Of a stretch of 64,000 nt of DNA, positions 4,616 through 64,000 are shown one piece after another. Under the pieces are notes generated by a model. It did not search any database, had not been told where the DNA came from, and saw nothing but the letters and a program-made list of their open reading frames with translations. Every line of letters begins with the position of its first letter. Within the stretch, counting starts at the first letter, position 1. The stretch is from Blastococcus sp. CT_GayMR16 (GTDB taxonomy: Bacteria > Actinomycetota > Actinomycetes > Mycobacteriales > Geodermatophilaceae), in assembly GCF_004570875.1 (NCBI RefSeq), contig NZ_SPQK01000010.1:1-64000 (forward strand). The letters run 5' to 3'. The translations under genes and the position numbers were made by a program.

Positions 4616-6112
<1,497 letters not shown>

Positions 6113-6306
6113 GTCGCTCCAGTGGGCGGGGGCGGCCGGCTGCGCAGGGCGCGGCGGGGCCGTCTCGGCGGTCTGCGGGGGATTCGAGCGAGCATGCCGA
6201 GGCTTCGGCGGGGCTCGTACCGTGTCCCAGGGTACGTCGAGACCGTACCGTTACGCAGCCCCTACGGGACGGAATGTGACGGAGCGGCTCGTCCGGGGCC
6301 GGTGGG

Positions 6307-6366
6307 TCAGCTGAGGTGCGAGCGGCCCAGGTGTGATCAGCCCAGGTGCGATCAGCCGAGGTGCGT
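6307..6366 (-). repeat. Four tandem 15-base repeats at the manA stop codon
   Basis: Four contiguous 15-base units (6352-6366, 6337-6351, 6322-6336, 6307-6321) read on the minus strand as ACGCACCTCGGCTGA, TCGCACCTGGGCTGA, TCACACCTGGGCCGC and TCGCACCTCAGCTGA. The first is the last five codons of manA including its stop; the others repeat the same phase (Ser-His-Leu-Gly/Ser-stop, one unit with Arg instead of stop). The repeat therefore duplicates the gene's own terminus. Confidence 0.85.
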
Positions 6367-7527
6367 CGTCGCCCGGTAGAGGACGGCGGGACCACGAGCG
6401 GTGACCGGCGTGGCGGCGGGCACGAAGGCCGAACCCCCCTTCTCGAGGGTCAGCTCACCCTCGGACGAGGCCAGGACGGCGGTGCCCTCGGTGCACAGCA
6501 CGACCTGGGGCCCGCCGGTCGTCAGCGATCCGGACCCGGTGTCGAGCTGGATGCGGGTGAGGTCGAAGTCGTCGACCGGCACCGGATAGCGCAGCCCCCC
6601 GGGCCCGAGGACCGGGTGGATGACCGGCACCCGGCCGTCGGTGAAGTCCAGGACCTCGATGAGTGCGGCCAGGTCGACGTGCTTGGTGGTGAGCCCGCCG
6701 CGCAGGACGTTGTCCGAGGCCGCCATGACCTCGACCCCCGCGCCGGACAGGTAGGCGTGCAGGTTCCCGGCGGGCAGGAACACCGCCTCCCCCGGCGCCA
6801 GCTTCAGGTGGTTGCACAGCAGCGAGATGACCACGCCCGGATCGCCGGGGTAGGTCGTCGCGAGGGACGCCGCCCACCGGTAGGTGTTGATGAACTCGGG
6901 ATCGTGGGCGGCCACGAACCGCCCGGCCGCCTCGGCGACCGCGCTGACCAGCACCGAGCGGTGCTCCGGGGAGAGCGCGATCAGCTGCGGGATGGCGGCC
7001 CGCAGCCCACCGCGGGCGAGCGCGGCGATGGTCGGCTTCAGCTCGGGCACCTGGAGCTTGGCCAGGCAGTGCAGCGACTCCTCCACCGGCCGGAAGCCGC
7101 ACAACGCCTCGAAGGTCGTCAGCGCGAGCAGCAGCTCCGGCTTGTGGAACGGGTCCTTGAACGTCCGCGTCGAGTCGTCGCGCGGCACGCCGGCGGCCTC
7201 CTCGGCGGCGAACCCGGCCTCGGCCTGCTCGTTGGTCGGGTGCGCCTGCAGCGACAGGGGCTGCTCGGCGGCGAGCACCTTCATCAGGAAGGGCAGCCGG
7301 GTCCCGAACCGCGCGTGGACGGCGGGACCGAGGAGCGCCTCGGGCTGCTCCTGGATCGCCTTGTCCAGCGGCGTGCCCGTCGAGAGCACGCTCGGAGCAT
7401 CCGGGTGGGCGCCCATCCACAGTTCGGCGTACGGCCGGTCTGCCGGGCTCGCCTTCCCCAGGAGCTCGGGGATCACCGTGCGCGAACCCCAGGGGTAGTG
7501 ACGCACAGTGTTCATCAGGGACCACAT
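6352..7527 (-). CDS. manA: Mannose-6-phosphate isomerase, class I
   Basis: Zinc-dependent cytosolic isomerase interconverting fructose 6-phosphate and mannose 6-phosphate, the entry to GDP-mannose (with the phosphomannomutase at 11808 and manC at 22149). The zinc-site motif QAHPTNEQAEAGF and the segment LTTFEALCGFRP are intact. The ATG at 7527 gives MWSLMNTVRHYPWGS, which aligns with the start of E. coli ManA, and a TAGCCT box lies eight bases upstream, so I prefer it to the GTG at 7575 that would add 16 residues. The 3' end consists of a tandemly repeated 15-base unit. Confidence 0.92.
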   Translation of the reverse strand: MWSLMNTVRHYPWGSRTVIPELLGKASPADRPYAELWMGAHPDAPSVLSTGTPLDKAIQEQPEALLGPAVHARFGTRLPFLMKVLAAEQPLSLQAHPTNEQAEAGFAAEEAAGVPRDDSTRTFKDPFHKPELLLALTTFEALCGFRPVEESLHCLAKLQVPELKPTIAALARGGLRAAIPQLIALSPEHRSVLVSAVAEAAGRFVAAHDPEFINTYRWAASLATTYPGDPGVVISLLCNHLKLAPGEAVFLPAGNLHAYLSGAGVEVMAASDNVLRGGLTTKHVDLAALIEVLDFTDGRVPVIHPVLGPGGLRYPVPVDDFDLTRIQLDTGSGSLTTGGPQVVLCTEGTAVLASSEGELTLEKGGSAFVPAATPVTARGPAVLYRATTHLG

Positions 7528-7535
7528 CGGGTCGG

Positions 7536-7541
7536 AGGCTA
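7536..7541 (-). promoter_or_regulatory. -10 box (TAGCCT) of manA, leaderless
   Basis: TAGCCT ends eight bases before the ATG at 7527 and supports that start over the GTG at 7575. No Shine-Dalgarno sequence precedes either codon. Confidence 0.5.
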
Positions 7542-7600
7542 CCGACTCGCCCTCACCCACGGGTACGACGCTCACTCGTCGAGGGCAGGCGGCCCAGTCG

Positions 7601-9358
7601 TCAGACGCCCGCGCGGACGTCCGGGGCGCCCAGCCGGGCTGCGTCGGCGGTGCGGTCGTCGGGCATCCGCTGCGACTCCCGCTCGGCGGCGACCCGGGCG
7701 GTGTAGTGCTCGACCTCGCGCGCGGTCCGCTCCTCGTCCCAGCCCAGTGCCTCGGCCATCAGTGCCGCGACCTCGGGTGCGGAGTCGACGCCGCGGTGGG
7801 CGCACTCGATCGACACCCGGGTGCGCCGGGTCAGGACGTCGTCGAGGTGGAGCGCCCCCTCCGCCATCACCGCGTGCACCACCTCGGCGGCCAGGTACCC
7901 GGGCGCTCCCGTCAGCGGCCGCGCCAGTGCCGGATGGGTGCGGGCCAGCTCGAGCACGTCGCCGATGCGGTCGCCGTGGCGGCGCAGCAGCCGCTCGACG
8001 GTCTCCTCGGGCAGGTTCCAGCCGGCGGCCAGCTGGGGCGCGGAGTCGCGGACGACGTCCCACTGGTGGGCGCCGACCAGCGGCAGGTGGGCGGTCCGCG
8101 AGGCCGGCACACCGGGCAGCCCGGCGACGGCCGCATCGACGGCGTCCTCGGCCATGACCCGGTAGGTCGTGTACTTGCCCCCCGCCACGAGCACGAGCCC
8201 CGGCACGGGCGTGACGACGGCGTGCTCGCGGGATAGCCGGCTCGTCTCGTCGGACTCCCCCGCCAGCAGCGGGCGCAGCCCGGCGTAGACGCCGAGGATC
8301 TGGTCGGGGGTCACCGGGCGGACGAGCACCGCGTTGACCTGCTCGAGGATGTAGCTGATGTCGGTGCTGCAGGCAGCCGGGTGGTCGCGGTCCAGCCGCC
8401 ACGGGGTGTCGGTGGTGCCGACGATCCAGCGGTCGCCCCACGGGATGACGAACAGCACGCTCGTCGGCGTCCGGAGGATCAGCCCCGACTGCTGCGCGCC
8501 GGCCGCCGTCAGCTCCGAGGCGTCGATCGCCGACCGCGGCACGACCAGGTGCACGCCCTTGGACGCGCGCACCTTCAGGCTGGGCGCGGACACGCCGAGC
8601 ATCGCGCCGATGTCGTCGCTCCACACACCGGTGGCGGCGATGACGCTGCGGGCCCGGATGCTGAACGACGTCCCGTCGGCGAGGTCGGCCACGTGCGCCC
8701 CGACCACGGGGGCCTGATCTCCCTCGCCGTCCCGGATCAGCCCGGTCACCCGGGCGCTGGACAGCACCCTCGCGCCGTAGCCGGCGGCGGTGCGGACGAC
8801 GGCGAGCGTGTGCCGGGCGTCGTCGACCTGGGCGTCCCAGTAGCGGATCGAGCCGCGGACGACGTCGCCGCGCAGCCCCGGGAAGGCCTGCAGCGTGGCC
8901 TTGCGGGACAGGTGGCGGTGTCGGGGGATCTCCCGGTCGCTGGTGAAGGCCGCGCCCAGCACGTCGTAGAGGGCGATGCCGGCGCCGTAGTAGGCGCGCT
9001 GCCAGACCGGCGCCGTCAGCGGCAGCAGGAACGGCAACGGGGTGACCAGGTGCGGCGCGATCGTCTGCACGAGCCGCGACCGCTCCGCCAGCGCCTCGCG
9101 CACCAGCGGGAACGCGAACTGCTCCAGGTAGCGCAGCCCGCCGTGGATCAGCTTGCTGGACCGACTGGAGGTGCCGGAGGCGAAGTCGCGGGCCTCGACC
9201 AGCGCGACCGACAGCCCGCGGCTGGCCGCATCGAGGGCGGCCCCGGCGCCCGTGACGCCGCCGCCGATGACGAGGACGTCGACGACCTCGTCCTGGAGGG
9301 CGGCGCGGTCGGCACGGCGGCGCGCCGGGGAAAGCATGGTCCGGCTCATGCCCTCCAC
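7601..9358 (-). CDS. glpD: Glycerol-3-phosphate dehydrogenase (FAD-dependent)
   Basis: Membrane-associated flavoenzyme oxidising glycerol 3-phosphate to dihydroxyacetone phosphate and feeding electrons to the respiratory chain. The 585-residue protein has the N-terminal FAD-binding motif VIGGGVTGAGAALDA, the family segment SSRSSKLIHGGLRYLE, and a C-terminal DAO_C-like domain with CAHRGVDSAPE. The start may be the GTG at 9358 or the ATG three codons later. It reads in the same direction as manA, with the stop 73 bases before the preferred manA start. The pmm operon ends 61 bases upstream. Confidence 0.93.
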   Translation of the reverse strand: MEGMSRTMLSPARRRADRAALQDEVVDVLVIGGGVTGAGAALDAASRGLSVALVEARDFASGTSSRSSKLIHGGLRYLEQFAFPLVREALAERSRLVQTIAPHLVTPLPFLLPLTAPVWQRAYYGAGIALYDVLGAAFTSDREIPRHRHLSRKATLQAFPGLRGDVVRGSIRYWDAQVDDARHTLAVVRTAAGYGARVLSSARVTGLIRDGEGDQAPVVGAHVADLADGTSFSIRARSVIAATGVWSDDIGAMLGVSAPSLKVRASKGVHLVVPRSAIDASELTAAGAQQSGLILRTPTSVLFVIPWGDRWIVGTTDTPWRLDRDHPAACSTDISYILEQVNAVLVRPVTPDQILGVYAGLRPLLAGESDETSRLSREHAVVTPVPGLVLVAGGKYTTYRVMAEDAVDAAVAGLPGVPASRTAHLPLVGAHQWDVVRDSAPQLAAGWNLPEETVERLLRRHGDRIGDVLELARTHPALARPLTGAPGYLAAEVVHAVMAEGALHLDDVLTRRTRVSIECAHRGVDSAPEVAALMAEALGWDEERTAREVEHYTARVAAERESQRMPDDRTADAARLGAPDVRAGV

Positions 9359-57079: not shown

Positions 57080-57562
57080 GTGCAGTGGGCCGAGACCGTC
57101 CGTGAGCGCATGGGCACGACCTGGCGCCTGCTGCTCAAGGAACTGAGCGCGTTCGGGGTCGTCGGCGCTGTCTGCTTCGCCATCGACGTGGCGCTGTTCC
57201 AGCTCTTCTACGCCCACGTCGGGCTCGGCGCGGTGACCTCCAAGCTCCTCGCGGCCCTCGTCTCCATGACGGTCGCCTACTTCGCGCACCGCCACTGGTC
57301 CTTCTCCCATCGGGCGCGCACCGGCATCCGCCGGGAGTACGTGCTGTTCGCCCTCGTGAACGGGGGCACGCTGCTGCTGAACCTCTGCATCGTCGCCGTC
57401 GTCCGCTACCCGCTGGGCCAGTCGAGCCCGCTGGTGCTGCAGCTGGCCAACGTCAGCGGGATCGCCGTCGGCACGGTCATCCGCTACCTCTCCTACCGCC
57501 GCTGGGTGTTCCCGGCCGCGGGGGTCGCCTCGAGCCCGGTGGCGACGCCTTCCGGGGGCTGA
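57080..57562 (+). CDS. GtrA family membrane protein
   Basis: A 160-residue protein with four membrane segments, of the GtrA family of putative polyprenyl-phosphate-sugar flippases. FGVVGAVCFAIDVALFQLFY, YFAHRHWSFSHR and IRYLSYRRWVFP are typical. It sits next to purK as Rv3277 does. The GTG has a leaderless-type -10 box; an ATG ten codons later is an alternative. Confidence 0.9.
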   Translation: MQWAETVRERMGTTWRLLLKELSAFGVVGAVCFAIDVALFQLFYAHVGLGAVTSKLLAALVSMTVAYFAHRHWSFSHRARTGIRREYVLFALVNGGTLLLNLCIVAVVRYPLGQSSPLVLQLANVSGIAVGTVIRYLSYRRWVFPAAGVASSPVATPSGG

Positions 57563-57740: not shown

Positions 57741-58730
57741 ATGCACTCATCCGAACCGAGCGTGCCCGCCGGGCTCGAGGACCTGCTCGACCTGAGCGTC
57801 CGCCTGGGCTCCGACCTCCGCCTCGTCCAGGGGGCCGGCGGCAACCTCTCGATCAAGACCGACGGCGTCCTGTGGATCAAGGCCTCCGGCACCCGGTTGA
57901 GCCAGGCGCGGACGCGCGACATCTTCGTCCCGATGGATGAGGCGGCCACCCGGGAGGCCGTGCTGGTCACCGAGGCGCTCACCCCCTACGTGCTGCCGTC
58001 CGCCCAGGCCGGGGGGCTCCGTCCGAGCATCGAGACGGCGCTGCACGTCCTGCTCCCGCACACCGTCGTCGTCCACGTGCACGGCGTCGGGTCGATCGCG
58101 GCCGGGCTGACCGACGGGGTCGAGGAGTCGGTCCGGACGCTGCCGGCCGACGTCGACACGGTCGTGGTGCCCTACGCCAAGCCGGGCGTCGAGCTCGCCC
58201 GCGCCGTGCTCGCGCGCACCCCTGCAGACCTCACCGGCGACCGTCCGCTGGTGCTGGTCCTGCGCAACCACGGGGTCGTCGTCGGAGCGGCGGACAGCGC
58301 CACCGCTGCCGAGGTGCTGGACCGCGTCGAGGCGCACTTCCGCTCGGCCTCGGCACCCCCCGCGGACGTCTCGACCGACTCGGGCCCGCTCTCCCCGCCC
58401 GGCACCGTCGACGCGACCGCGGCAGCGGTGCTGTGCGCCGGCGCCCTGACCCCGGATTCCGCGGTGTTCCTGGGCCCCGCGCCCTTCGGCCGGATCGACG
58501 GGGGCCCGCCGGCCGCCGACGACGGCAGCCCGCACTCGGGCTTCGTCGCCGACGACGGCTCGGTGTGGCTGCGCCCCGGGCTCGGCCCCGACGAGCGCGA
58601 GGTCGCGGCCAGCCTCGTCGACGCCGCTCGTCAGACCGACGGCGGCGACGTCTCGACGCTCTCGACCGCGCAGGTCGACGAACTGGTCACCTGGGAGGCG
58701 GAGAAGTGGCGTCAGCAGCTCAAGCGATGA
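57741..58730 (+). CDS. Class II aldolase/adducin domain protein
   Basis: A 329-residue protein whose first ~200 residues are a class II (zinc) aldolase fold: phosphate-binding GAGGNLSIK (31-39), KASGT, the acidic residue E98 in SIETALH, zinc histidines 112 and 114 in VVHVHG and a third, 177, in LRNHGVVV. Members cleave sugar phosphates such as fuculose or rhamnulose 1-phosphate, or dehydrate them. A C-terminal extension of about 120 residues is unlike FucA. ATG follows AGAAAGAAG; overlaps the next gene by four bases, so it probably prepares a precursor for the nucleotidyltransferase. Confidence 0.82.
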   Translation: MHSSEPSVPAGLEDLLDLSVRLGSDLRLVQGAGGNLSIKTDGVLWIKASGTRLSQARTRDIFVPMDEAATREAVLVTEALTPYVLPSAQAGGLRPSIETALHVLLPHTVVVHVHGVGSIAAGLTDGVEESVRTLPADVDTVVVPYAKPGVELARAVLARTPADLTGDRPLVLVLRNHGVVVGAADSATAAEVLDRVEAHFRSASAPPADVSTDSGPLSPPGTVDATAAAVLCAGALTPDSAVFLGPAPFGRIDGGPPAADDGSPHSGFVADDGSVWLRPGLGPDEREVAASLVDAARQTDGGDVSTLSTAQVDELVTWEAEKWRQQLKR

Positions 58731-60409
58731 GGCCCCTGCTCGTCATCCCGATGACCGGGGTGAGCGCGCGGTTCACGGCGGCGGGCTACGACCGGCCGAA
58801 GTTCCTCCTCGAGACCGACGGTCAGCTCGTCATCGACCACGTGATCGACATGTACCCCGACTGGGCCGACGTGGTCTTCGTCTGCAATGCGCTGCACCTC
58901 GACGATCCGCGGTTCGGCCTCGAGGAGCACCTGCTCTCCCGGCGTCCCGGCGCGACCGTCGTCCGCGTCGACACCCCGGCCCTCGGGCCGGGCGACGCGG
59001 TGCTCCGGGCGCGCGAGCACATCCCCCTGGACCGCCCGGTCGTCGTCAACTACTGCGACTTCGCCGCCTACCAGGACAGCGACCTGCTCGCCGAGCGCTT
59101 GAGCAGCGGCGAGGTGGACGGGATCATCCCCGTCTACACCGGCGGACACCCCCACATGGCGCACTCCACGTCCTACGCCTACGTGCGCATGGACGGCGCG
59201 CGGGTGGCCGACATCCAGGAGAAGCAGCCCTGGACCGACGATCCCACCAGCGAGTTCGCGTCCAGCGGCACCTACGCGTTCGCCTCCGGGAAGCTGCTGC
59301 TCGACTCGCTGGAGCAGCAGGTCGAGGAGGGGCACCTGCTCAAGGGCGAGTACTACCTGAGCCTCACCTACAAGCCGCTGCTCGCCCGCGGCGGCCGCGT
59401 CGAGGTGCTGGAGCTCCAGCACTTCATGCAGTGGGGCACGCCGCAGGACTTCGAGGAGTACCGGGAGACCAGCCGGGCCGTGGCCGCCTGGACCGCCCCC
59501 CGGGTCCGCCCCTCCACCACGGGTGCGGCCGGCCCGAGCGCGCGCGTGCTCCTGGCCTCCGGCGCAGGTCAGCGGTTCAAGGACGCCGGCTACGACGCCC
59601 CCAAGCCGGCGCTGCCCCTCTCCGGCCGGCCCGTCGTCGACCACGCCCTGGCCGGCCTGCCCGGCACCGAGACCGTGCTCGTGACCCGGCGCGACCTCGC
59701 CGACCACGGCGCCGTCGCGAGCCTCGCCGAGCAGGTGGGGGCCCGGCTGGTGTCCCTGCCCGGCATGACGCAGGGCCAGGCCGAGTCGGCGCTGCGCGGG
59801 CTGGAGGCGGTCGCGGCCGACGTCCCCGTGACCGTCGGCGCGTGCGACGCGCTGCCCACGATCGCGCAGTCGGCCTTCGACGAGGCGCTGGCGACCGCCG
59901 GACCCGAGGGCCTGGTGGTCTGGCTGGCCCGCCCGTACCACGCGGCGGCTCGGCGCCCCCAGCAGTACGGCTGGGCGTCGGTGGTCCCCGACGGCACCCT
60001 GGGCGACTGCTGGCTCAAGACGGCCCCGGCCGACCCGTCTGCCGGCGTCATGATCGGCACGTTCACGTTCGGCTCCCGGGACGCCGGCATCCGGCACATC
60101 GAGTCCCTGATGGCCGACGACGAGCGGGTGAACGGCGAGTTCTACCTCGACAGCCTGGTCGCGCGGCTGGCCAAGCAGGGCGTCCCGGTGGCCGGTCTGG
60201 TCGTGGAGACCTTCAGCTCGGTGGGCACCCCGGCCGAGTACGAGGCGCTGCGCTACTGGCAGTCCTGCTTCTCCAAGTGGGTGCACCATCCCTACGCCCT
60301 CGCCGCCGATCCGCTCGTCCGGGCCGCCGACCGGGCGGCGCTGGACCACGGGTTCCGGCAGTTCGAGCCCCGCCTGCCCGTACCGAGGACGCCGCACCGT
60401 GGCGCGTGA
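58727..60409 (+). CDS. Tandem (two-domain) nucleotidyltransferase
   Basis: A 560-residue protein with two copies of a nucleotidyltransferase fold. Domain 1 (about 1-255) starts LLVIPMTGVSARFTAAGYDR and PKFLLETDG; domain 2 (about 274-505) starts LASGAGQRFKDAGYD and PKPALPLSG. Both keep the GxGxRF-type loop, the PK lysine, an aspartate-containing NYCDF/GACDA metal site and a GEYYLS/GEFYLD segment. Likely activates a sugar or polyol phosphate to an NDP derivative; one domain may be regulatory. ATGA overlap with the aldolase gene. Confidence 0.85.
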   Translation: MRPLLVIPMTGVSARFTAAGYDRPKFLLETDGQLVIDHVIDMYPDWADVVFVCNALHLDDPRFGLEEHLLSRRPGATVVRVDTPALGPGDAVLRAREHIPLDRPVVVNYCDFAAYQDSDLLAERLSSGEVDGIIPVYTGGHPHMAHSTSYAYVRMDGARVADIQEKQPWTDDPTSEFASSGTYAFASGKLLLDSLEQQVEEGHLLKGEYYLSLTYKPLLARGGRVEVLELQHFMQWGTPQDFEEYRETSRAVAAWTAPRVRPSTTGAAGPSARVLLASGAGQRFKDAGYDAPKPALPLSGRPVVDHALAGLPGTETVLVTRRDLADHGAVASLAEQVGARLVSLPGMTQGQAESALRGLEAVAADVPVTVGACDALPTIAQSAFDEALATAGPEGLVVWLARPYHAAARRPQQYGWASVVPDGTLGDCWLKTAPADPSAGVMIGTFTFGSRDAGIRHIESLMADDERVNGEFYLDSLVARLAKQGVPVAGLVVETFSSVGTPAEYEALRYWQSCFSKWVHHPYALAADPLVRAADRAALDHGFRQFEPRLPVPRTPHRGA

Positions 60410-60821
60410 GCAGCATCTGAAGTCGCTCCTGCGCTTCCTGCTGGTGGGTGGCACCGCGGTCGTGCTGGACGCCGTCTCCTACGTGCTGCTGCACAAGGCC
60501 GGCGTCCCGGTCGACGCCGCCAAGGCGATCAGCTTCCTGATCGGCGCGGTCTTCGCCTACTTCGCGAACTGGCGCTTCACCTTCGGTGCCCGCCGAAGCC
60601 GGTGGAGCGAGGTCCTCTTCGTCGTCGTCTACGCCCTCGCGCTGGGGATCAACGTGGCGGCCAACGCCGGTGTGCGAGCGTGGCTCGGCACCAGCACCAC
60701 CGACGCGACGATCGCGTTCCTGGTGGCGACCGGCCTGTCGGCCGCCTGGAACTTCGTCGGCATGTCCCTGTTCGTGTTCCGCCGGGAGGAGTCCAGCGTT
60801 GACCACGTCGCACAGCGGTGA
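60399..60821 (+). CDS. GtrA family membrane protein (second copy)
   Basis: A 140-residue four-helix protein of the GtrA flippase-like family: RFLLVGGTAVVLDAVSYVLL, YFANWRFTFGARRS and WNFVGMSLFVFRRE. It probably flips or presents the polyprenyl-phosphate sugar made by the GT2 protein that follows. The GTG start lies 11 bases inside the end of the nucleotidyltransferase gene; its own end overlaps the GT2 gene by 23 bases. Confidence 0.88.
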   Translation: MAREQHLKSLLRFLLVGGTAVVLDAVSYVLLHKAGVPVDAAKAISFLIGAVFAYFANWRFTFGARRSRWSEVLFVVVYALALGINVAANAGVRAWLGTSTTDATIAFLVATGLSAAWNFVGMSLFVFRREESSVDHVAQR

Positions 60822-61551
60822 CACCACGGGAGGAGGCAACCTCGCCTTCTCCCTGGTGATCCCCTGCTACAACGAGTCCGCCGGACTGCCCGAGCTCGTC
60901 CGTCGCTGCGCGTACGTCGCGGCCGAGGGCGGGGGCGAGATCGTCCTGGTCGACAACGGCTCTACCGACGACTCCGCTGCCGTGCTCGAGGGCCTCCTGG
61001 GCCCCGCCGGCGACACCGCGGGACGCGACGGCGTGCGATGGGTGCGCGTGCCGGTCAACCAGGGCTACGGCTTCGGGATCACCAGCGGCCTCGCGGCGGC
61101 CCGGGCCGACATCGTCGGCTGGACGCACGCGGACCTGCAGACCGACCCGGCCGACGTCCTCCGCGCGCTGCCCCTGTTCGAGGGGGCCGGCGAGCGGGTG
61201 CTGGTCAAGGGCCGCCGCTTCGGCCGGCCGGTCGCCGACCGCGTCTTCACGGCCGGCATGTCGACCTTCGAGACCGCGCTGCTCCGCCGTCCGCTGCGCG
61301 ACATCAACGCCCAGCCCACGCTCTTCTCCCGGGAGCTGCTGGACCGCTGGGGCGAGCCGCCGACCGACTTCTCCCTGGACCTCTTCGCGCTGTACTCCGC
61401 ACAGGAGCTGGGCTTCGAGATCCGGCGCTTCCCGGTGATCTTCGCGCCGCGCAAGTGGGGCTCCTCGAGCTGGAACACCGACTGGTCGGCCAAGCGCCGC
61501 TTCATCCGCCGCACGCTGGACTACAGCCTCCAGCTGCGGAAGTCGCTGTGA
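60799..61551 (+). CDS. GT2 glycosyltransferase (polyprenyl-phosphate sugar synthase-like)
   Basis: A 250-residue GT-A enzyme with SLVIPCYNESAGLPELVRRC, VLVDNGSTDDSAAVLE, VNQGYGFGITSGLAAARADI, the DxD-like THADLQTDP and KWGSSSWNTDWSAKRRFI. This resembles dolichol-phosphate-mannose synthase/GtrB enzymes, which charge a polyprenyl phosphate. The TTG at 60799 is used because GGAGGA lies eight bases upstream and no ATG or GTG fits. Paired with GtrA upstream it forms a GtrA-GtrB-like unit. Confidence 0.86.
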   Translation: MTTSHSGDTTGGGNLAFSLVIPCYNESAGLPELVRRCAYVAAEGGGEIVLVDNGSTDDSAAVLEGLLGPAGDTAGRDGVRWVRVPVNQGYGFGITSGLAAARADIVGWTHADLQTDPADVLRALPLFEGAGERVLVKGRRFGRPVADRVFTAGMSTFETALLRRPLRDINAQPTLFSRELLDRWGEPPTDFSLDLFALYSAQELGFEIRRFPVIFAPRKWGSSSWNTDWSAKRRFIRRTLDYSLQLRKSL

Positions 61552-62165
61552 CCCTGATCTGCGCCCACCGCGTCAACGAACCCGACGCGCTGCGCGAGGT
61601 GCCGACCGACCTGGGCGTGGAGATCGACCTGCACGCCGACGGCGACCGCCTCGTCCTCGTGCACGACGCCTTCTCGACCGGACCGGACTTCGAGACGTGG
61701 CTGGCCGGCTACCGGCACCGCTTCATCGTGCTGAACACGAAGGAGGAGGGACTCGAGCAGCGGATCACCGCGATGCTCACCGAGCGCGGCATCACCGAGT
61801 GGGCGTTCCTCGACCAGTCCTTCCCCTTCCTCGTCCGCAGCCTGCGCTCCGGGGAGACCCGCACGATGGTGCGGCTCTCCGAGTACGAGTCGGTGGCGAC
61901 GGCGATGGCTCTCACTCCCCGGCCGGACTGGGTGTGGGTCGACTCCTTCACCGGCAGCTGGCCGCCGGCGGAGGAACTGCGCACCCTCGCCGACCACGGC
62001 TTCCGGCTGATGGTCGTGAGCCCCGAGCTGCAGGGTCGGCCCCTGGACGACGAGATGCCCGCGATCACCCAGCGCTTCCTGGACGCCGGCATCCGCCTGG
62101 ACGGGGTGTGCACCAAGCAGCCCGCCCGCTGGCATCGACCCGAGGCGCCGTGGTGGGGACCCTGA
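61548..62165 (+). CDS. Small GDPD-like (PLC-like TIM-barrel) phosphodiesterase
   Basis: A 205-residue protein with ICAHRVNEPDALREVPTDLG, GVEIDLHADGDRLVLVHD and the barrel-end strand SWPPAEELRTLADHGFRLM. HR, ExD and HD are the catalytic residues of glycerophosphodiester phosphodiesterases, here in a shorter barrel without a signal peptide, so cytosolic. It could cleave a phosphodiester intermediate of the pathway. GTGA overlap with the GT2 gene; overlaps the next gene by 16 bases. Confidence 0.8.
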   Translation: MTLICAHRVNEPDALREVPTDLGVEIDLHADGDRLVLVHDAFSTGPDFETWLAGYRHRFIVLNTKEEGLEQRITAMLTERGITEWAFLDQSFPFLVRSLRSGETRTMVRLSEYESVATAMALTPRPDWVWVDSFTGSWPPAEELRTLADHGFRLMVVSPELQGRPLDDEMPAITQRFLDAGIRLDGVCTKQPARWHRPEAPWWGP

Positions 62166-64000
62166 TCGCCCGGCTCAAGGGGAGCCGCACGCTCACCGGA
62201 CTGTCGCGGGGCACGGCCGTCCTCCTCGCCCTCGCGCTGCTCCTGCGCCTGGCTCTGGTCCTGCTCCTCGTGCCGGAGATCCACAGCGCGTGGTTCGTCC
62301 CGTTCTTCGACGACGTCATCGCCCACCCCTCGTGGGACCCGTGGCAGTCGTTCCTGGACCACGGCGGCGACCCGGACTCCTTCCCCTACGGGCCGGTCAT
62401 GTTCGTCTGGTTCGGCTTCTGGGCCTGGATCACCAGCTGGCTGCCCGCCCCCTGGGGCACCCAGATCGGCATCGGGCTCGGCCTGCTCGCCCTGGAAGTC
62501 CTCCTGTGGGCGCTGGTCACCCGGTTCCGACCCGCGTCGTCCCGGACGACGCTGCTCCTGCTGGCGCTCAGCCCGGTCGCGGTCTACGCCACCTACATCC
62601 ACGGTCAGCTGGACCTGCTGCCGACCCTGCTCATCGTCGCCAGCGTCCTGCTCCTGCGGGACCGCCGCTGGACGGCGGCCGGCGTCCTCGGCGGGCTCGC
62701 CGTGGCCGCCAAGTTCTCCTCGGCCTTCGTGCCGCCCCTCATCCTGATCTTCCTGCTGCGCAACGCGCGCTTCCGGGAGCACACCCGGGCCTACGTGATC
62801 GGGCTGATCCCGGGGCTGGTCCTGACGGTCCTGCCGATCCTGCTGCCCGGCTACCGCACGATGGTCCTGCGGACGCCGGAGAGTCAGTCGGTCGTCGCCT
62901 ACGCACTGGAGCTCGGCCCCGGGCTCGCGCTGGTCGTCCTGCCGGCGGTCTACCTTGCCCTGGCCGGACTGCTCTACCGCTTCAAGCGGGGCAATCCCGA
63001 CATCGTCGTGCTGGTCGTCGGCGTGATGCTCACGGCGGTCACCCTGCTCACCCCGGCCAGCCCCGGCTGGTACCTCTGGTCGGTCCCGTTCCTCGCGCTG
63101 CTCGCCGCACCGCTGGGCCGACAGGCGGTCGCCTCCGTCTGGCTGTTCTGGGGCGCCGCCACGGTAACCCTTGCCCTGCGCGCCTCCGGCGCGACATGGC
63201 GGGCCGCGGTCGGAGACCGGCCCGCGAGCACGTTCAGCGAGGTCGGCAACTTCGTCAACCGGTCGGGCGCCGTCGGCGCAGTCCTCTCCACAGGCACGGT
63301 GCTGCTCGGCGTCCTCATGCTGGTGCTCATCTACCGCCGGGCCCGCCCCCGCCTGGACATGTACCGGCTCAGCAACTCGCCGATGTCGGTCGCCATCGCC
63401 GGGGACAGCGGCACGGGCAAGGACACGCTGTGCATCTCGCTGGCCAATGTCTTCGGCGAGAGCGCGACGTCGTTCCTGATGGGCGACGACTACCACCTCT
63501 ACGACCGCAAGGCACCGCTGTGGCAGGTCACCACCCACCTGCACCCGGCGGCCAACGACCTGCCCACCATGAACCGCGACGCGCTGAGCCTCATGCGCGG
63601 CCAGCCGGTGTGGGCGGTGCACTACGACCACACCCGGGGCCGGTTCACCAAGCCACGGCCGATCAAGCAGCGGGAGCTGGTCGTCGTCAACGGTCTCCAC
63701 GCACTGACCGCGGAGGAGGTCCGCCGCACGGCGGACCTGACCGTCTACACCTCCATGGACGAGCGGCTGCGCCGGCGGCTGAAGATCAACCGGGACGTCG
63801 GACAACGCGGGCACTCCCTGGAGAACGTGGTCGCCTCCATCGAGCGGCGCTATCCGCACGCCCGCCGGTTCATCGAGCCGCAGGCCGATCTCGCCTCGGT
63901 CGTCTTCCGGCTGGAGCCGGTGAAGCCGCTGCCGGCCGAGGAGGCTGTCGACAACCGCCCGATCGAGATGATGCTGGTCGCCTACCTGCGTGGCTCCTCG
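62150..64000 (+). CDS. Fusion of GT-C-like membrane glycosyltransferase and uridine-kinase/PRK-like kinase (3' end outside window)
   Basis: The 617 codons in the window are open without a stop. Residues 1 to about 400 hold about ten membrane segments; the first loop WFVPFFDDVIAHPSWDPW has acidic residues where GT-C transferases bind metal, and GQLDLLPTLL and AAKFSSAFVPP recall PIG-M/GT87-type proteins. From about 412 a P-loop kinase begins: VAIAGDSGTGKDTLCISL (Walker A 418-425), FLMGDDYHLYDRKAPLWQ, HLHPAANDL and VVVNGLHAL, the layout of uridine kinase/phosphoribulokinase. It starts at GTG 62150 or 62153 behind GAGG. Confidence 0.82.
   Translation, partial: MVGTLIARLKGSRTLTGLSRGTAVLLALALLLRLALVLLLVPEIHSAWFVPFFDDVIAHPSWDPWQSFLDHGGDPDSFPYGPVMFVWFGFWAWITSWLPAPWGTQIGIGLGLLALEVLLWALVTRFRPASSRTTLLLLALSPVAVYATYIHGQLDLLPTLLIVASVLLLRDRRWTAAGVLGGLAVAAKFSSAFVPPLILIFLLRNARFREHTRAYVIGLIPGLVLTVLPILLPGYRTMVLRTPESQSVVAYALELGPGLALVVLPAVYLALAGLLYRFKRGNPDIVVLVVGVMLTAVTLLTPASPGWYLWSVPFLALLAAPLGRQAVASVWLFWGAATVTLALRASGATWRAAVGDRPASTFSEVGNFVNRSGAVGAVLSTGTVLLGVLMLVLIYRRARPRLDMYRLSNSPMSVAIAGDSGTGKDTLCISLANVFGESATSFLMGDDYHLYDRKAPLWQVTTHLHPAANDLPTMNRDALSLMRGQPVWAVHYDHTRGRFTKPRPIKQRELVVVNGLHALTAEEVRRTADLTVYTSMDERLRRRLKINRDVGQRGHSLENVVASIERRYPHARRFIEPQADLASVVFRLEPVKPLPAEEAVDNRPIEMMLVAYLRGSS

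What the first reader, a model, noticed from the sequence alone, without database searches (positions are those of the whole stretch)
57741..64000. Coupled six-gene module for activating, flipping and transferring an unusual sugar or polyol
Class II aldolase-like, double nucleotidyltransferase, GtrA, GT2, GDPD-like phosphodiesterase and GT-C/kinase genes overlap by 4 to 23 bases each. The set contains every step of a GtrA/B/C-type polyprenyl-phosphate pathway plus its own precursor synthesis, but the aldolase, phosphodiesterase and kinase are unexpected. This looks like an undescribed glycan-modification system.
Basis: inference. Interest (0 to 1): 0.8.

Follow-up and report, generated by a model that had tools for sequence, protein, structure and literature searches.

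The report
Eight-gene rare-sugar glycan decoration cassette
This is a set of overlapping genes, shared by very distant bacteria and partly by phages, that probably builds an unknown sugar from a pentose phosphate and attaches it to a surface glycan; its odd enzyme mix, with a relative of the Calvin-cycle kinase, matches no pathway I found described.

Summary
Six overlapping genes are present (57741-64270), and two more follow beyond the window end: a HAD phosphatase (64267-64995) and a membrane protein (64992-66851). Of 38 double-NTase loci (window's own not counted) with at least 6 kb on both sides, 28 carry all six partner functions and 34 at least five. GtrA is optional (20 of 38).

The 'kinase' is a phosphoribulokinase-type (PRK) domain fused to a GT-C. 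The 'phosphodiesterase' has a GDPD fold. The aldolase's nearest characterised relatives are fuculose-1-phosphate aldolases. In 10 of 10 picocyanobacterial kinase domains the catalytic Asp and His are lost; both are kept in the 37 other domains examined. Two phage contigs carry GDPD, aldolase, two NTases and a stand-alone intact PRK-type kinase without transferases; one also has HAD.

Best reading: a GtrA-type extracytoplasmic glycosylation system with its own precursor pathway, possibly entering at ribulose-5-phosphate. Product, glycan and every enzyme activity are untested. My paper searches found no description of the set.

The parts
57741..58730 (+). class II aldolase, 329 aa, with a conserved C-terminal extension
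   Evidence: PF00596 1.6e-17; E98, H112, H114, H177 invariant in 26 aligned sequences, window included; nearest characterised PDB relatives are L-fuculose-1-phosphate aldolases, after the uncharacterised 3m4r
58727..60409 (+). double nucleotidyltransferase, 560 aa, two NTase domains
   Evidence: PF12804/PF00483, two stretches each; motifs of both domains in relatives
60399..60821 (+). GtrA-family membrane protein, putative flippase; optional in relatives
   Evidence: PF04138 5.9e-17; 20 of 38 loci with full flanks
60799..61551 (+). GT2 glycosyltransferase without a predicted membrane segment, putative polyprenyl-phosphate sugar synthase
   Evidence: PF00535 8.9e-18; no hydrophobic segment by a simple hydropathy scan; 32 of 38 loci
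61548..62165 (+). GDPD-fold phosphodiesterase-like protein, 205 aa, no Pfam hit
   Evidence: H7 R8 E25 D27 H39 invariant in 20 aligned sequences; model pLDDT 93.9, top nine PDB hits are GDPDs; 34 of 38 loci
62153..64000 (+). GT-C (GT87-like) fused to a phosphoribulokinase-type kinase; cut by the window end, real end 64270 on the contig. Two further genes of the unit lie beyond the window on the same contig numbering: HAD phosphatase 64267-64995 (+) and a 619-aa polytopic membrane protein 64992-66851 (+)
   Evidence: PF09594 8.7e-8 and PF00485 6.3e-29 in one 705-aa frame; kinase nearest to phosphoribulokinases 6hzk/6kev 5e-36. HAD: PF00702 6.6e-15, 33 of 38 loci; membrane protein: relatives in 4 of 38 loci (L006, L007, L008, L047)

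Best explanation
It is a transferable cassette that makes an activated, unusual (probably pentulose-derived) sugar in the cytoplasm and adds it to a surface glycan outside the membrane. SHOWN by sequence: the composition, the order, the co-inheritance, kept catalytic motifs, and the fact that the soluble enzymes also occur without the transferases in phages. INFERRED: (1) the PRK domain phosphorylates C1 of ribulose-5-phosphate or a close analogue; (2) the HAD phosphatase removes a phosphate, leaving a ketose-1-phosphate; (3) the FucA-like class II aldolase breaks or re-forms the C3-C4 bond, giving a rare pentulose-1-phosphate or a product of aldol exchange; (4) the two NTase domains activate it; (5) the GDPD-fold enzyme hydrolyses or rearranges a phosphodiester intermediate (least certain); (6) GT2 puts the residue on polyprenyl phosphate, GtrA (or another flippase where GtrA is absent) turns it outward, and the GT-C adds it to the acceptor. 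My degrees of belief: glycan-decoration cassette with dedicated precursor synthesis 0.85; C1-kinase entry from ribulose-5-phosphate 0.35.
For: Co-inheritance across phyla. Reciprocal anchors: in IMG/VR the GDPD query finds 4 contigs, all 4 with an adjacent double NTase, 2 of 4 with the whole module; in plasmids the 20 GDPD records are all among the 31 double-NTase records. Kinase is PRK-like: 127.6 bits to phosphoribulokinase 6hzk; chains named uridine kinase score 105.0 (9qkn, a 321-aa protein listed beside cyanobacterial PRKs) and 73.3 (3w8r). The catalytic Asp/His dyad reported for PRK (PMC9978339, passages) is kept in 37 domains and lost in all 10 picocyanobacterial ones, whose other checked motifs are kept. 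Of genomes tested for PRK, 4 of 5 with a dead kinase have a separate ~300-aa PRK (E below 2e-60; the fifth, a 1.1-Mb genome, has RuBisCO) against 1 of 33 with an intact kinase. Phage contigs L182/L183 hold GDPD, aldolase, two NTases and a stand-alone intact kinase without GT2/GtrA/GT-C; L182 also HAD. The aldolase profile's nearest characterised relatives are ketose-1-phosphate aldolases.
Against: No activity, substrate or glycan is known. Methylobacterium longum (G108) has a separate PRK (no RuBisCO hit) and an intact fused kinase; Roseomonas pecuniae (G107) has a RuBisCO-family hit (4.2e-66), no separate PRK and an intact kinase. Many intact-kinase genomes hold other, weaker PF00485 members (probably uridine kinases; 279-300 aa in G317 and G474), and my line between these and 'PRK' is by E-value and length. 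The dead kinases lie in one group of organisms: the double-NTase tree needs 3 changes, a one-clade AU test gives p 0.06, and GDPD and HAD trees need one change, so this is one or two events, and the Fisher values (3e-4; 1e-5) are not corrected for kinship. Five of the ten dead-kinase genomes were not tested for PRK; G118, tested, has PRK but no RuBisCO hit. Four of the ten keep a GxxxxGK P-loop. Some loci lack a partner: GT2 in five Roseomonas-type loci, GDPD in L017 and L029, HAD in L081. The C-C chemistry and the GDPD step are guesses. Synechococcus phages with related NTase, aldolase and GDPD genes lack this kinase, but S-SM2 has a gene annotated 'putative carbohydrate kinase'.
Confidence: 0.55

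Rival explanations
1. Same cassette, but the PRK-type kinase acts on another substrate (a pentitol, ribose, tetrose or heptose phosphate) and ribulose-1,5-bisphosphate is not an intermediate.
For: PRK and uridine kinase are one Pfam family (PF00485) and both match; a chain named uridine kinase (9qkn) scores 105 bits; G108 keeps an intact fused kinase beside its own PRK; NCBIfam's phosphoribulokinase model scores 176 bits, below its 236-bit cut-off.
Against: The best PDB matches are phosphoribulokinases; the PRK catalytic dyad is kept; the domain decays in picocyanobacteria, where PRK or RuBisCO was found in all five genomes tested.
Confidence: 0.35
2. A PRPP-based pentofuranose three-component system like that of Citrobacter (PNAS 2024, PMC11127046), with Rib/Xyl/Ara furanose side chains.
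For: Shares a GT-C, a HAD phosphatase and a polyprenyl-phosphate-sugar logic; that work places pentofuranose addition in the periplasm (abstract and part 1 of 2 of the discussion read).
Against: None of the nine window/contig proteins scanned has a phosphoribosyltransferase (PPPRS) or MATE domain in Pfam, and the GT-C hits GT87. The cassette instead has GT2, two NTase domains, an aldolase and a PRK.
Confidence: 0.05
3. A catabolic or salvage pathway (sugar-phosphate cleavage to DHAP plus an aldehyde) that merely sits with glycan genes.
For: Kinase plus class II aldolase is the usual order in ketose catabolism (my knowledge); the aldolase is FucA/RhaD-like.
Against: Two NTase domains, GT2 and GT-C are among the conserved partners; the PRK domain is fused to the GT-C in the window and relatives; in Azospirillum and Hirschia plasmids the cassette lies among polysaccharide and ABC-transporter genes.
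Confidence: 0.05
4. Not a functional unit: independent glycan genes brought together by chance and frequent shuffling.
For: Order varies between lineages, and ten of 38 full-flank loci lack at least one partner.
Against: 28 of 38 loci have all six partner functions, and the gene families' identity matrices correlate; independent anchors recover the same partners.
Confidence: 0.03

Closest known systems
GtrA/GtrB/Gtr(type) periplasmic glucosylation of O antigens and Gram-positive three-component glycosylation
   Same: GtrA-family protein, GT2 enzyme and GT-C encoded together; polyprenyl-phosphate-linked donor expected
   Different: GT2 lacks the membrane anchor described for GtrB (PMC11127046; hydropathy); GtrA optional; the GT-C is fused to a PRK-type kinase; six catalytic domains for precursor synthesis (aldolase, two NTases, GDPD, PRK, HAD) travel with it
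PRPP-dependent pentofuranose three-component systems (Citrobacter O1/O2, PMC11127046) and mycobacterial arabinan assembly
   Same: HAD-type phosphatase (Citrobacter system) and GT-C; a pentose phosphate likely the entry metabolite
   Different: no phosphoribosyltransferase, no MATE flippase, GT87 rather than GT136; uses kinase, aldolase, NTases and a GDPD fold
Phosphoribulokinase (Calvin cycle)
   Same: P-loop, catalytic Asp and His, best PDB matches
   Different: fused to a membrane glycosyltransferase; 35 of 44 genomes tested have no RuBisCO-family hit
L-fuculose-1-phosphate / RhaD-type class II aldolases
   Same: conserved His and Glu kept
   Different: extra C-terminal part; in a glycan operon
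GDPD-HAD-NTase sets on Rhizobium, Sinorhizobium, Azospirillum, Tropicibacter and Pseudomonas plasmids
   Same: GDPD-like, HAD and one fused or two separate NTases side by side
   Different: no PRK, GtrA or class II aldolase annotated in the five stretches viewed (the gene table is incomplete); only 22-35% identical

Membership tests
GtrA/B/C three-component glycosylation | GtrA-family membrane protein | tested here: met
   PF04138 5.9e-17 in the window; but only 20 of 38 relatives' loci have it
GtrA/B/C three-component glycosylation | GT2 polyprenyl-phosphate sugar synthase with one or two membrane helices | tested here: not met
   GT2 domain present, but no hydrophobic segment in 250 aa; so it works like, but is not typical of, GtrB
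GtrA/B/C three-component glycosylation | GT-C transferase | tested here: met
   PF09594 8.7e-8, above the cut-off; ten hydrophobic stretches before the kinase. A fold model was queued but not finished
GtrA/B/C three-component glycosylation | residue added to a surface glycan outside the membrane | not testable with these tools
   needs mutants and glycan analysis
PRPP-dependent pentofuranose three-component system | polyprenyl phosphoribose synthase | tested here: not met
   no such Pfam domain in the nine proteins scanned
PRPP-dependent pentofuranose three-component system | MATE flippase | tested here: not met
   no such Pfam domain in the nine proteins scanned
phosphoribulokinase | sequence closer to PRK than to uridine kinase | tested here: met
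   6hzk/6kev 5e-36 (127.6 bits); chains named uridine kinase: 9qkn 4.1e-29 (105.0 bits), 3w8r 2.3e-19 (73.3 bits)
phosphoribulokinase | curated NCBIfam phosphoribulokinase score | tested here: not met
   NF005655 176.3 bits, cut-off 236
phosphoribulokinase | P-loop and catalytic Asp/His dyad | tested here: met
   kept in the window and 36 relatives; Asp and His lost in 10 picocyanobacterial copies, four of which keep GxxxxGK; dyad from PMC9978339 passages; its mapping onto GDDYH and YDHxxG is mine
phosphoribulokinase | phosphorylates ribulose-5-phosphate | not testable with these tools
   needs assay
glycerophosphodiester phosphodiesterase (GDPD) | GDPD TIM-barrel fold | tested here: met
   nine of nine PDB chains at E 0.001 or better are GDPDs, best 3ks5 7.7e-6, TM 0.69
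glycerophosphodiester phosphodiesterase (GDPD) | Pfam GDPD gathering score | tested here: not met
   window protein has no Pfam hit; a remote relative in Sinorhizobium just passes, 23.9 against 23.6
class II aldolase | Aldolase_II domain with catalytic Glu and three metal-binding His | tested here: met
   PF00596; E98, H112, H114, H177 invariant; the role of these residues is recalled

The most novel reading that the evidence does not exclude
Bacteria and some of their phages have a route that turns ribulose-5-phosphate, through ribulose-1,5-bisphosphate or its 1-phosphate, into a previously unknown nucleotide-activated pentulose-type sugar for surface glycans: a second use of the Calvin-cycle kinase reaction. 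Picocyanobacteria, whose Calvin cycle already makes ribulose-1,5-bisphosphate, have let the cassette's own kinase decay while keeping its other active sites.
Probability: 0.3. Interest if true: 0.9.

Novelty: new variant of a known kind. Interest (0 to 1): 0.74.

Why it matters
If right, it adds a whole precursor pathway to the known GtrA-type glycosylation systems and gives phosphoribulokinase chemistry a role outside carbon fixation. A review says ribulose-1,5-bisphosphate is used only by the Calvin cycle (PMC9978339, passage). The decayed kinase in picocyanobacteria is a natural experiment that makes the first substrate directly testable in a tube. The cassette occurs in Prochlorococcus, actinobacteria, proteobacteria and others, wholly or in part in phage contigs, and on an E. 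coli plasmid, where its genes are annotated only by broad family names.

Tried and rejected
Rejected: (a) chance neighbourhood. (b) Membership in the PRPP pentofuranose systems: no phosphoribosyltransferase, no MATE domain (against PMC11127046). (c) Uridine kinase as the best name. (d) Anti-phage defence: no PADLOC hit for four proteins. (e) A link to the xylulose O antigen of E. coli: blastn in 5,426 E. coli genomes finds the cassette only on two plasmids (whole stretch in near mode; its first 3,369 bases in distant mode); this has no power below about 65-70% identity. Xylulose as a rare bacterial sugar comes from PMC8707391 (passages); L-xylulose on a rhamnan in Yersinia enterocolitica O:10 from PMC11380512 (passages), whose main text has no 'aldolase' or 'nucleotidyl'. 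(f) G1199, a gammaproteobacterium with RuBisCO and PRK, looked like support because it has no fused kinase, but its double NTase (L085) has no module partner beside it, so I did not count it. (g) Two independent kinase losses: suggested by one tree, not required by two others.

Led nowhere: a structure of the GT-C/kinase fusion (alignment A6) was accepted after busy replies and was not finished. Papers: searches listed none; for 65, 66, 68, 69, 70, 103, 104, 120 I saw listings with the starts of abstracts, and of those papers opened only PMC9978339, PMC8707391, PMC11380512, PMC13390465 (passages) and PMC11127046 (outline, abstract, passages, part 1 of 2 of the discussion).
Full report
1. What is there. 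The window is bases 1-64000 of contig C1 of a 4.5-Mb, 47-contig genome. Six same-strand genes run from 57741 to 64270 with overlaps of 4, 11, 23, 4 and 13 bases. The last gene is cut by the window end. On the contig two more genes overlap by 4 bases each: a HAD phosphatase (64267-64995) and a 619-aa polytopic membrane protein (64992-66851); after a 67-base gap (start codon chosen by me) follow a methyltransferase and a second GT2.

2. Co-inheritance. A genome-contig scan with the double NTase gave 29 loci, by title from Microbacteriaceae, several groups of proteobacteria, Acidobacteria, Nitrospira, Prochlorococcus and Synechococcaceae. After dropping two duplicates (L090, L091), the second half of a split genome (L031), two second loci (L087, L088) and one weak locus (L089), 52 loci remained, the window's own not among them; 38 have at least 6 kb on both sides. 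In those 38: aldolase 36, GT2 32, GDPD 34, GT-C 34, kinase 34, HAD 33, GtrA 20, the 619-aa membrane protein 4; all six partner functions in 28, at least five in 34. Of the four poor ones, L013 has the missing GT2, GDPD, GT-C/kinase and HAD at another site (L087); L079 and L080 hold two partners, L085 none. L015, with a short flank, also has GDPD, GT-C/kinase and HAD at a second site (L088). Single absences are GT2 in four Roseomonas-type loci (L010, L011, L014, L033; also in L012, which has a short flank), GDPD in L017 (and in L029, short flank) and HAD in L081. Pairwise identities of the different families correlate (Spearman 0.38-0.86 over all loci, 0.61-0.88 without picocyanobacteria; the two NTase domains with each other 0.98; eight rows left out).

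3. Other anchors give the same answer. Searching IMG/VR with the GDPD family found 4 contigs; all 4 have an adjacent double NTase and 2 have the whole module (two of the four look like the same sequence). In plasmids, the 20 records with a GDPD relative are all among the 31 records with a double-NTase relative (compared by accession). The GT-C/kinase query covers 78% or more only in the three plasmids that have the full set; the other 12 records match 24-27%, the kinase part.

4. Distribution is patchy. Strong double-NTase hits: 7 of 385 genomes of the class of Sphingomonas L009, 5 of 369 of the class of L017, 6 of 386 of the phylum of Prochlorococcus L025 (E below 1e-170; 19 at 1e-30), 6 of 160, 2 of 111 and 1 of 105 of three orders, and 1 of 296 of the window's own phylum; each count includes the centre genome, and the first also a second genome known before. 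Among 98 genomes of its relatives, its own included, only the window genome and G017 have a full-length match (61% identity). The six Actinobacterial copies form one supported group. This looks like horizontal spread (inference).

5. The kinase. Against the PDB the domain matches phosphoribulokinases best (5e-36, 127.6 bits); chains named uridine kinase score 105.0 bits (9qkn, listed beside 'cyanobacteria specific phosphoribulokinase' entries) and 73.3 bits (3w8r). NCBIfam's PRK model scores 176 bits, below its cut-off of 236. For PRK a catalytic Asp/His dyad and the ATP-binding P-loop are described (PMC9978339, passages). Of 47 kinase domains (two duplicates left out), 37 keep P-loop, Asp and His; 10 have lost Asp and His, and six of these also the P-loop, while four keep GxxxxGK (alignment of the decayed parts is uncertain). 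All 10 are picocyanobacterial: five by record title, five as members of the order of the Synechococcaceae genome G116. In those 10 loci the motifs that I checked in the aldolase, both NTase domains, GDPD, GT2 and HAD are kept (the HAD of L027 is cut by the contig end). In L028, another Prochlorococcus, the GT-C/kinase gene was not found at the locus. Four other genomes of the same phylum (G317, G474, G361, G446) keep an intact kinase; they have no PRK at the level of section 6 and no Calvin-type RuBisCO hit, though G361 has a weak RuBisCO-family hit (1.6e-19) and G317 and G474 hold weaker PF00485 proteins of 279-300 aa.

6. Link to the Calvin cycle. Genomes were searched for PRK (PF00485; 30, 14) and RuBisCO (PF00016; 44). 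I called 'separate PRK' a ~300-aa frame with E below 2e-60; weaker PF00485 hits, probably uridine kinases and the like, occur widely. With a dead kinase: 4 of 5 tested have a separate PRK (one of them, G118, without a RuBisCO hit), and the fifth, G119 of 1.1 Mb, has RuBisCO but no PRK hit of that level. With an intact kinase: 1 of 33 has a separate PRK (G108, Methylobacterium longum, no RuBisCO hit), which goes against a strict rule; G107 (Roseomonas pecuniae) has a RuBisCO-family hit of 4.2e-66 without a separate PRK. Four intact-kinase loci (three plasmids, L102) were not tested. Fisher values of 3e-4 and 1e-5 ignore kinship. The double-NTase tree needs three label changes; an AU test of one clade (the ten plus L028) gives p 0.06; GDPD and HAD trees need one. 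So the association rests on one or two losses. It is what one expects if the domain makes ribulose-1,5-bisphosphate, but other reasons for decay are possible.

7. Phages separate the soluble core from the transferases. A double-NTase scan of IMG/VR gave 77 loci; by profile (40 bits or more) 55 carry double NTase plus a distant aldolase, 17 the NTase alone (many on short stretches), 1 NTase plus the membrane protein, 2 the whole module, and L182 and L183 the core. L182 has GDPD, aldolase, two separate NTases, a stand-alone kinase and HAD in a row, near a baseplate-hub protein (5e-24); L183 has GDPD, aldolase, two NTases and the stand-alone kinase, near a helicase (L183's second NTase seen in its translation). 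Both kinases score about 198 bits and keep P-loop, Asp and His. Neither locus has GT2, GtrA or GT-C by profile. Named Synechococcus phages (18 of 19 records) carry related NTases; in S-SM2 and Bellamy an aldolase and a small GDPD-like gene follow. None has the PRK-type kinase at E 1e-5 (5 records hit, none Synechococcus), although S-SM2 has a 'putative carbohydrate kinase'.

8. Reading. GT2, GtrA and GT-C make the cassette work like the GtrA/B/C systems; the other domains make its donor. After an uncharacterised protein (3m4r), the aldolase profile is nearest to L-fuculose-1-phosphate aldolases, which fits a C1 kinase followed by a phosphatase acting on a bisphosphate. I infer ribulose-5-phosphate, a 1,5-bisphosphate, a ketose-1-phosphate, an aldol step, NDP activation, polyprenyl-phosphate transfer, flipping, and GT-C transfer. 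The GDPD step is open. The acceptor may be a rhamnan-like wall polysaccharide: 5-29 kb upstream lie an ABC-2 permease, RgpF-like and WbsX-like proteins and an LCP-family protein; this is proximity only.

9. Known or new. The closest analogue that I read is the PRPP-based pentofuranose system (PMC11127046), which differs in donor synthesis, flippase and GT-C family. Searches with sets of the cassette's own terms returned none, one and none (the one, PMC10040529 on halotolerance, was not opened). Broader searches showed no description among the listed titles and abstract starts. The library lacks most subscription papers, so the set may be described elsewhere. I file it as a new variant of a known kind of glycosylation system with an undescribed precursor pathway.

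Noticed in passing
L047 (NZ_CP145712.1, 6022-14984): The whole cassette with the extra membrane gene sits on an IncR E. coli plasmid with IS26 nearby (human stool); an essentially identical 8,963-base copy occurs on a plasmid of a bullfrog isolate: 2 of 5,426 E. coli genomes, none on chromosomes.
   Followed up: partly
L182, L183, L111-L187: Many phage contigs, and named Synechococcus phages such as S-SM2 and Bellamy, carry the double NTase (PHROG 3980, unknown function), often with a class II aldolase; two contigs carry the soluble core with a stand-alone PRK-type kinase.
   Followed up: partly
L050, L107-L110: A wider, distant set of GDPD-like + HAD + one fused or two separate NTases without PRK occurs on Rhizobium, Sinorhizobium, Azospirillum lipoferum, Tropicibacter and Pseudomonas plasmids, its NTases annotated as 'glycosyltransferase family 2'.
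   Followed up: partly
window 28626-52315: A region with polysaccharide genes: ABC-2 permease, methyltransferases, RgpF-like and RgpF/WbsX proteins, SpoIID- and amidase-domain proteins, LytR-CpsA-Psr protein (ten frames scanned).
   Followed up: no
window 57080-57562: A second GtrA-family gene lies 178 bases upstream of the cassette on the same strand, next to oppositely oriented genes that look by eye like PurK and PurE.
   Followed up: no
contig 80990-88207 (L004): Three neighbouring paralogous proteins with a HExxH-type protease motif, two with repeated C-terminal units, seen by eye in the translations.
   Followed up: no
L080 (G533) 5659-8700: In a 0.8-Mb genome, GT2, GDPD and double NTase flank genes that look by eye like an FGGY sugar kinase and a rhamnose-isomerase-like protein, with no PF00485 hit in the genome at 1e-8; a possible replacement of the kinase part.
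   Followed up: no
L028 (Prochlorococcus AG-459-N19): The GT-C/kinase gene is missing between GDPD and HAD although most of the cassette is present.
   Followed up: no
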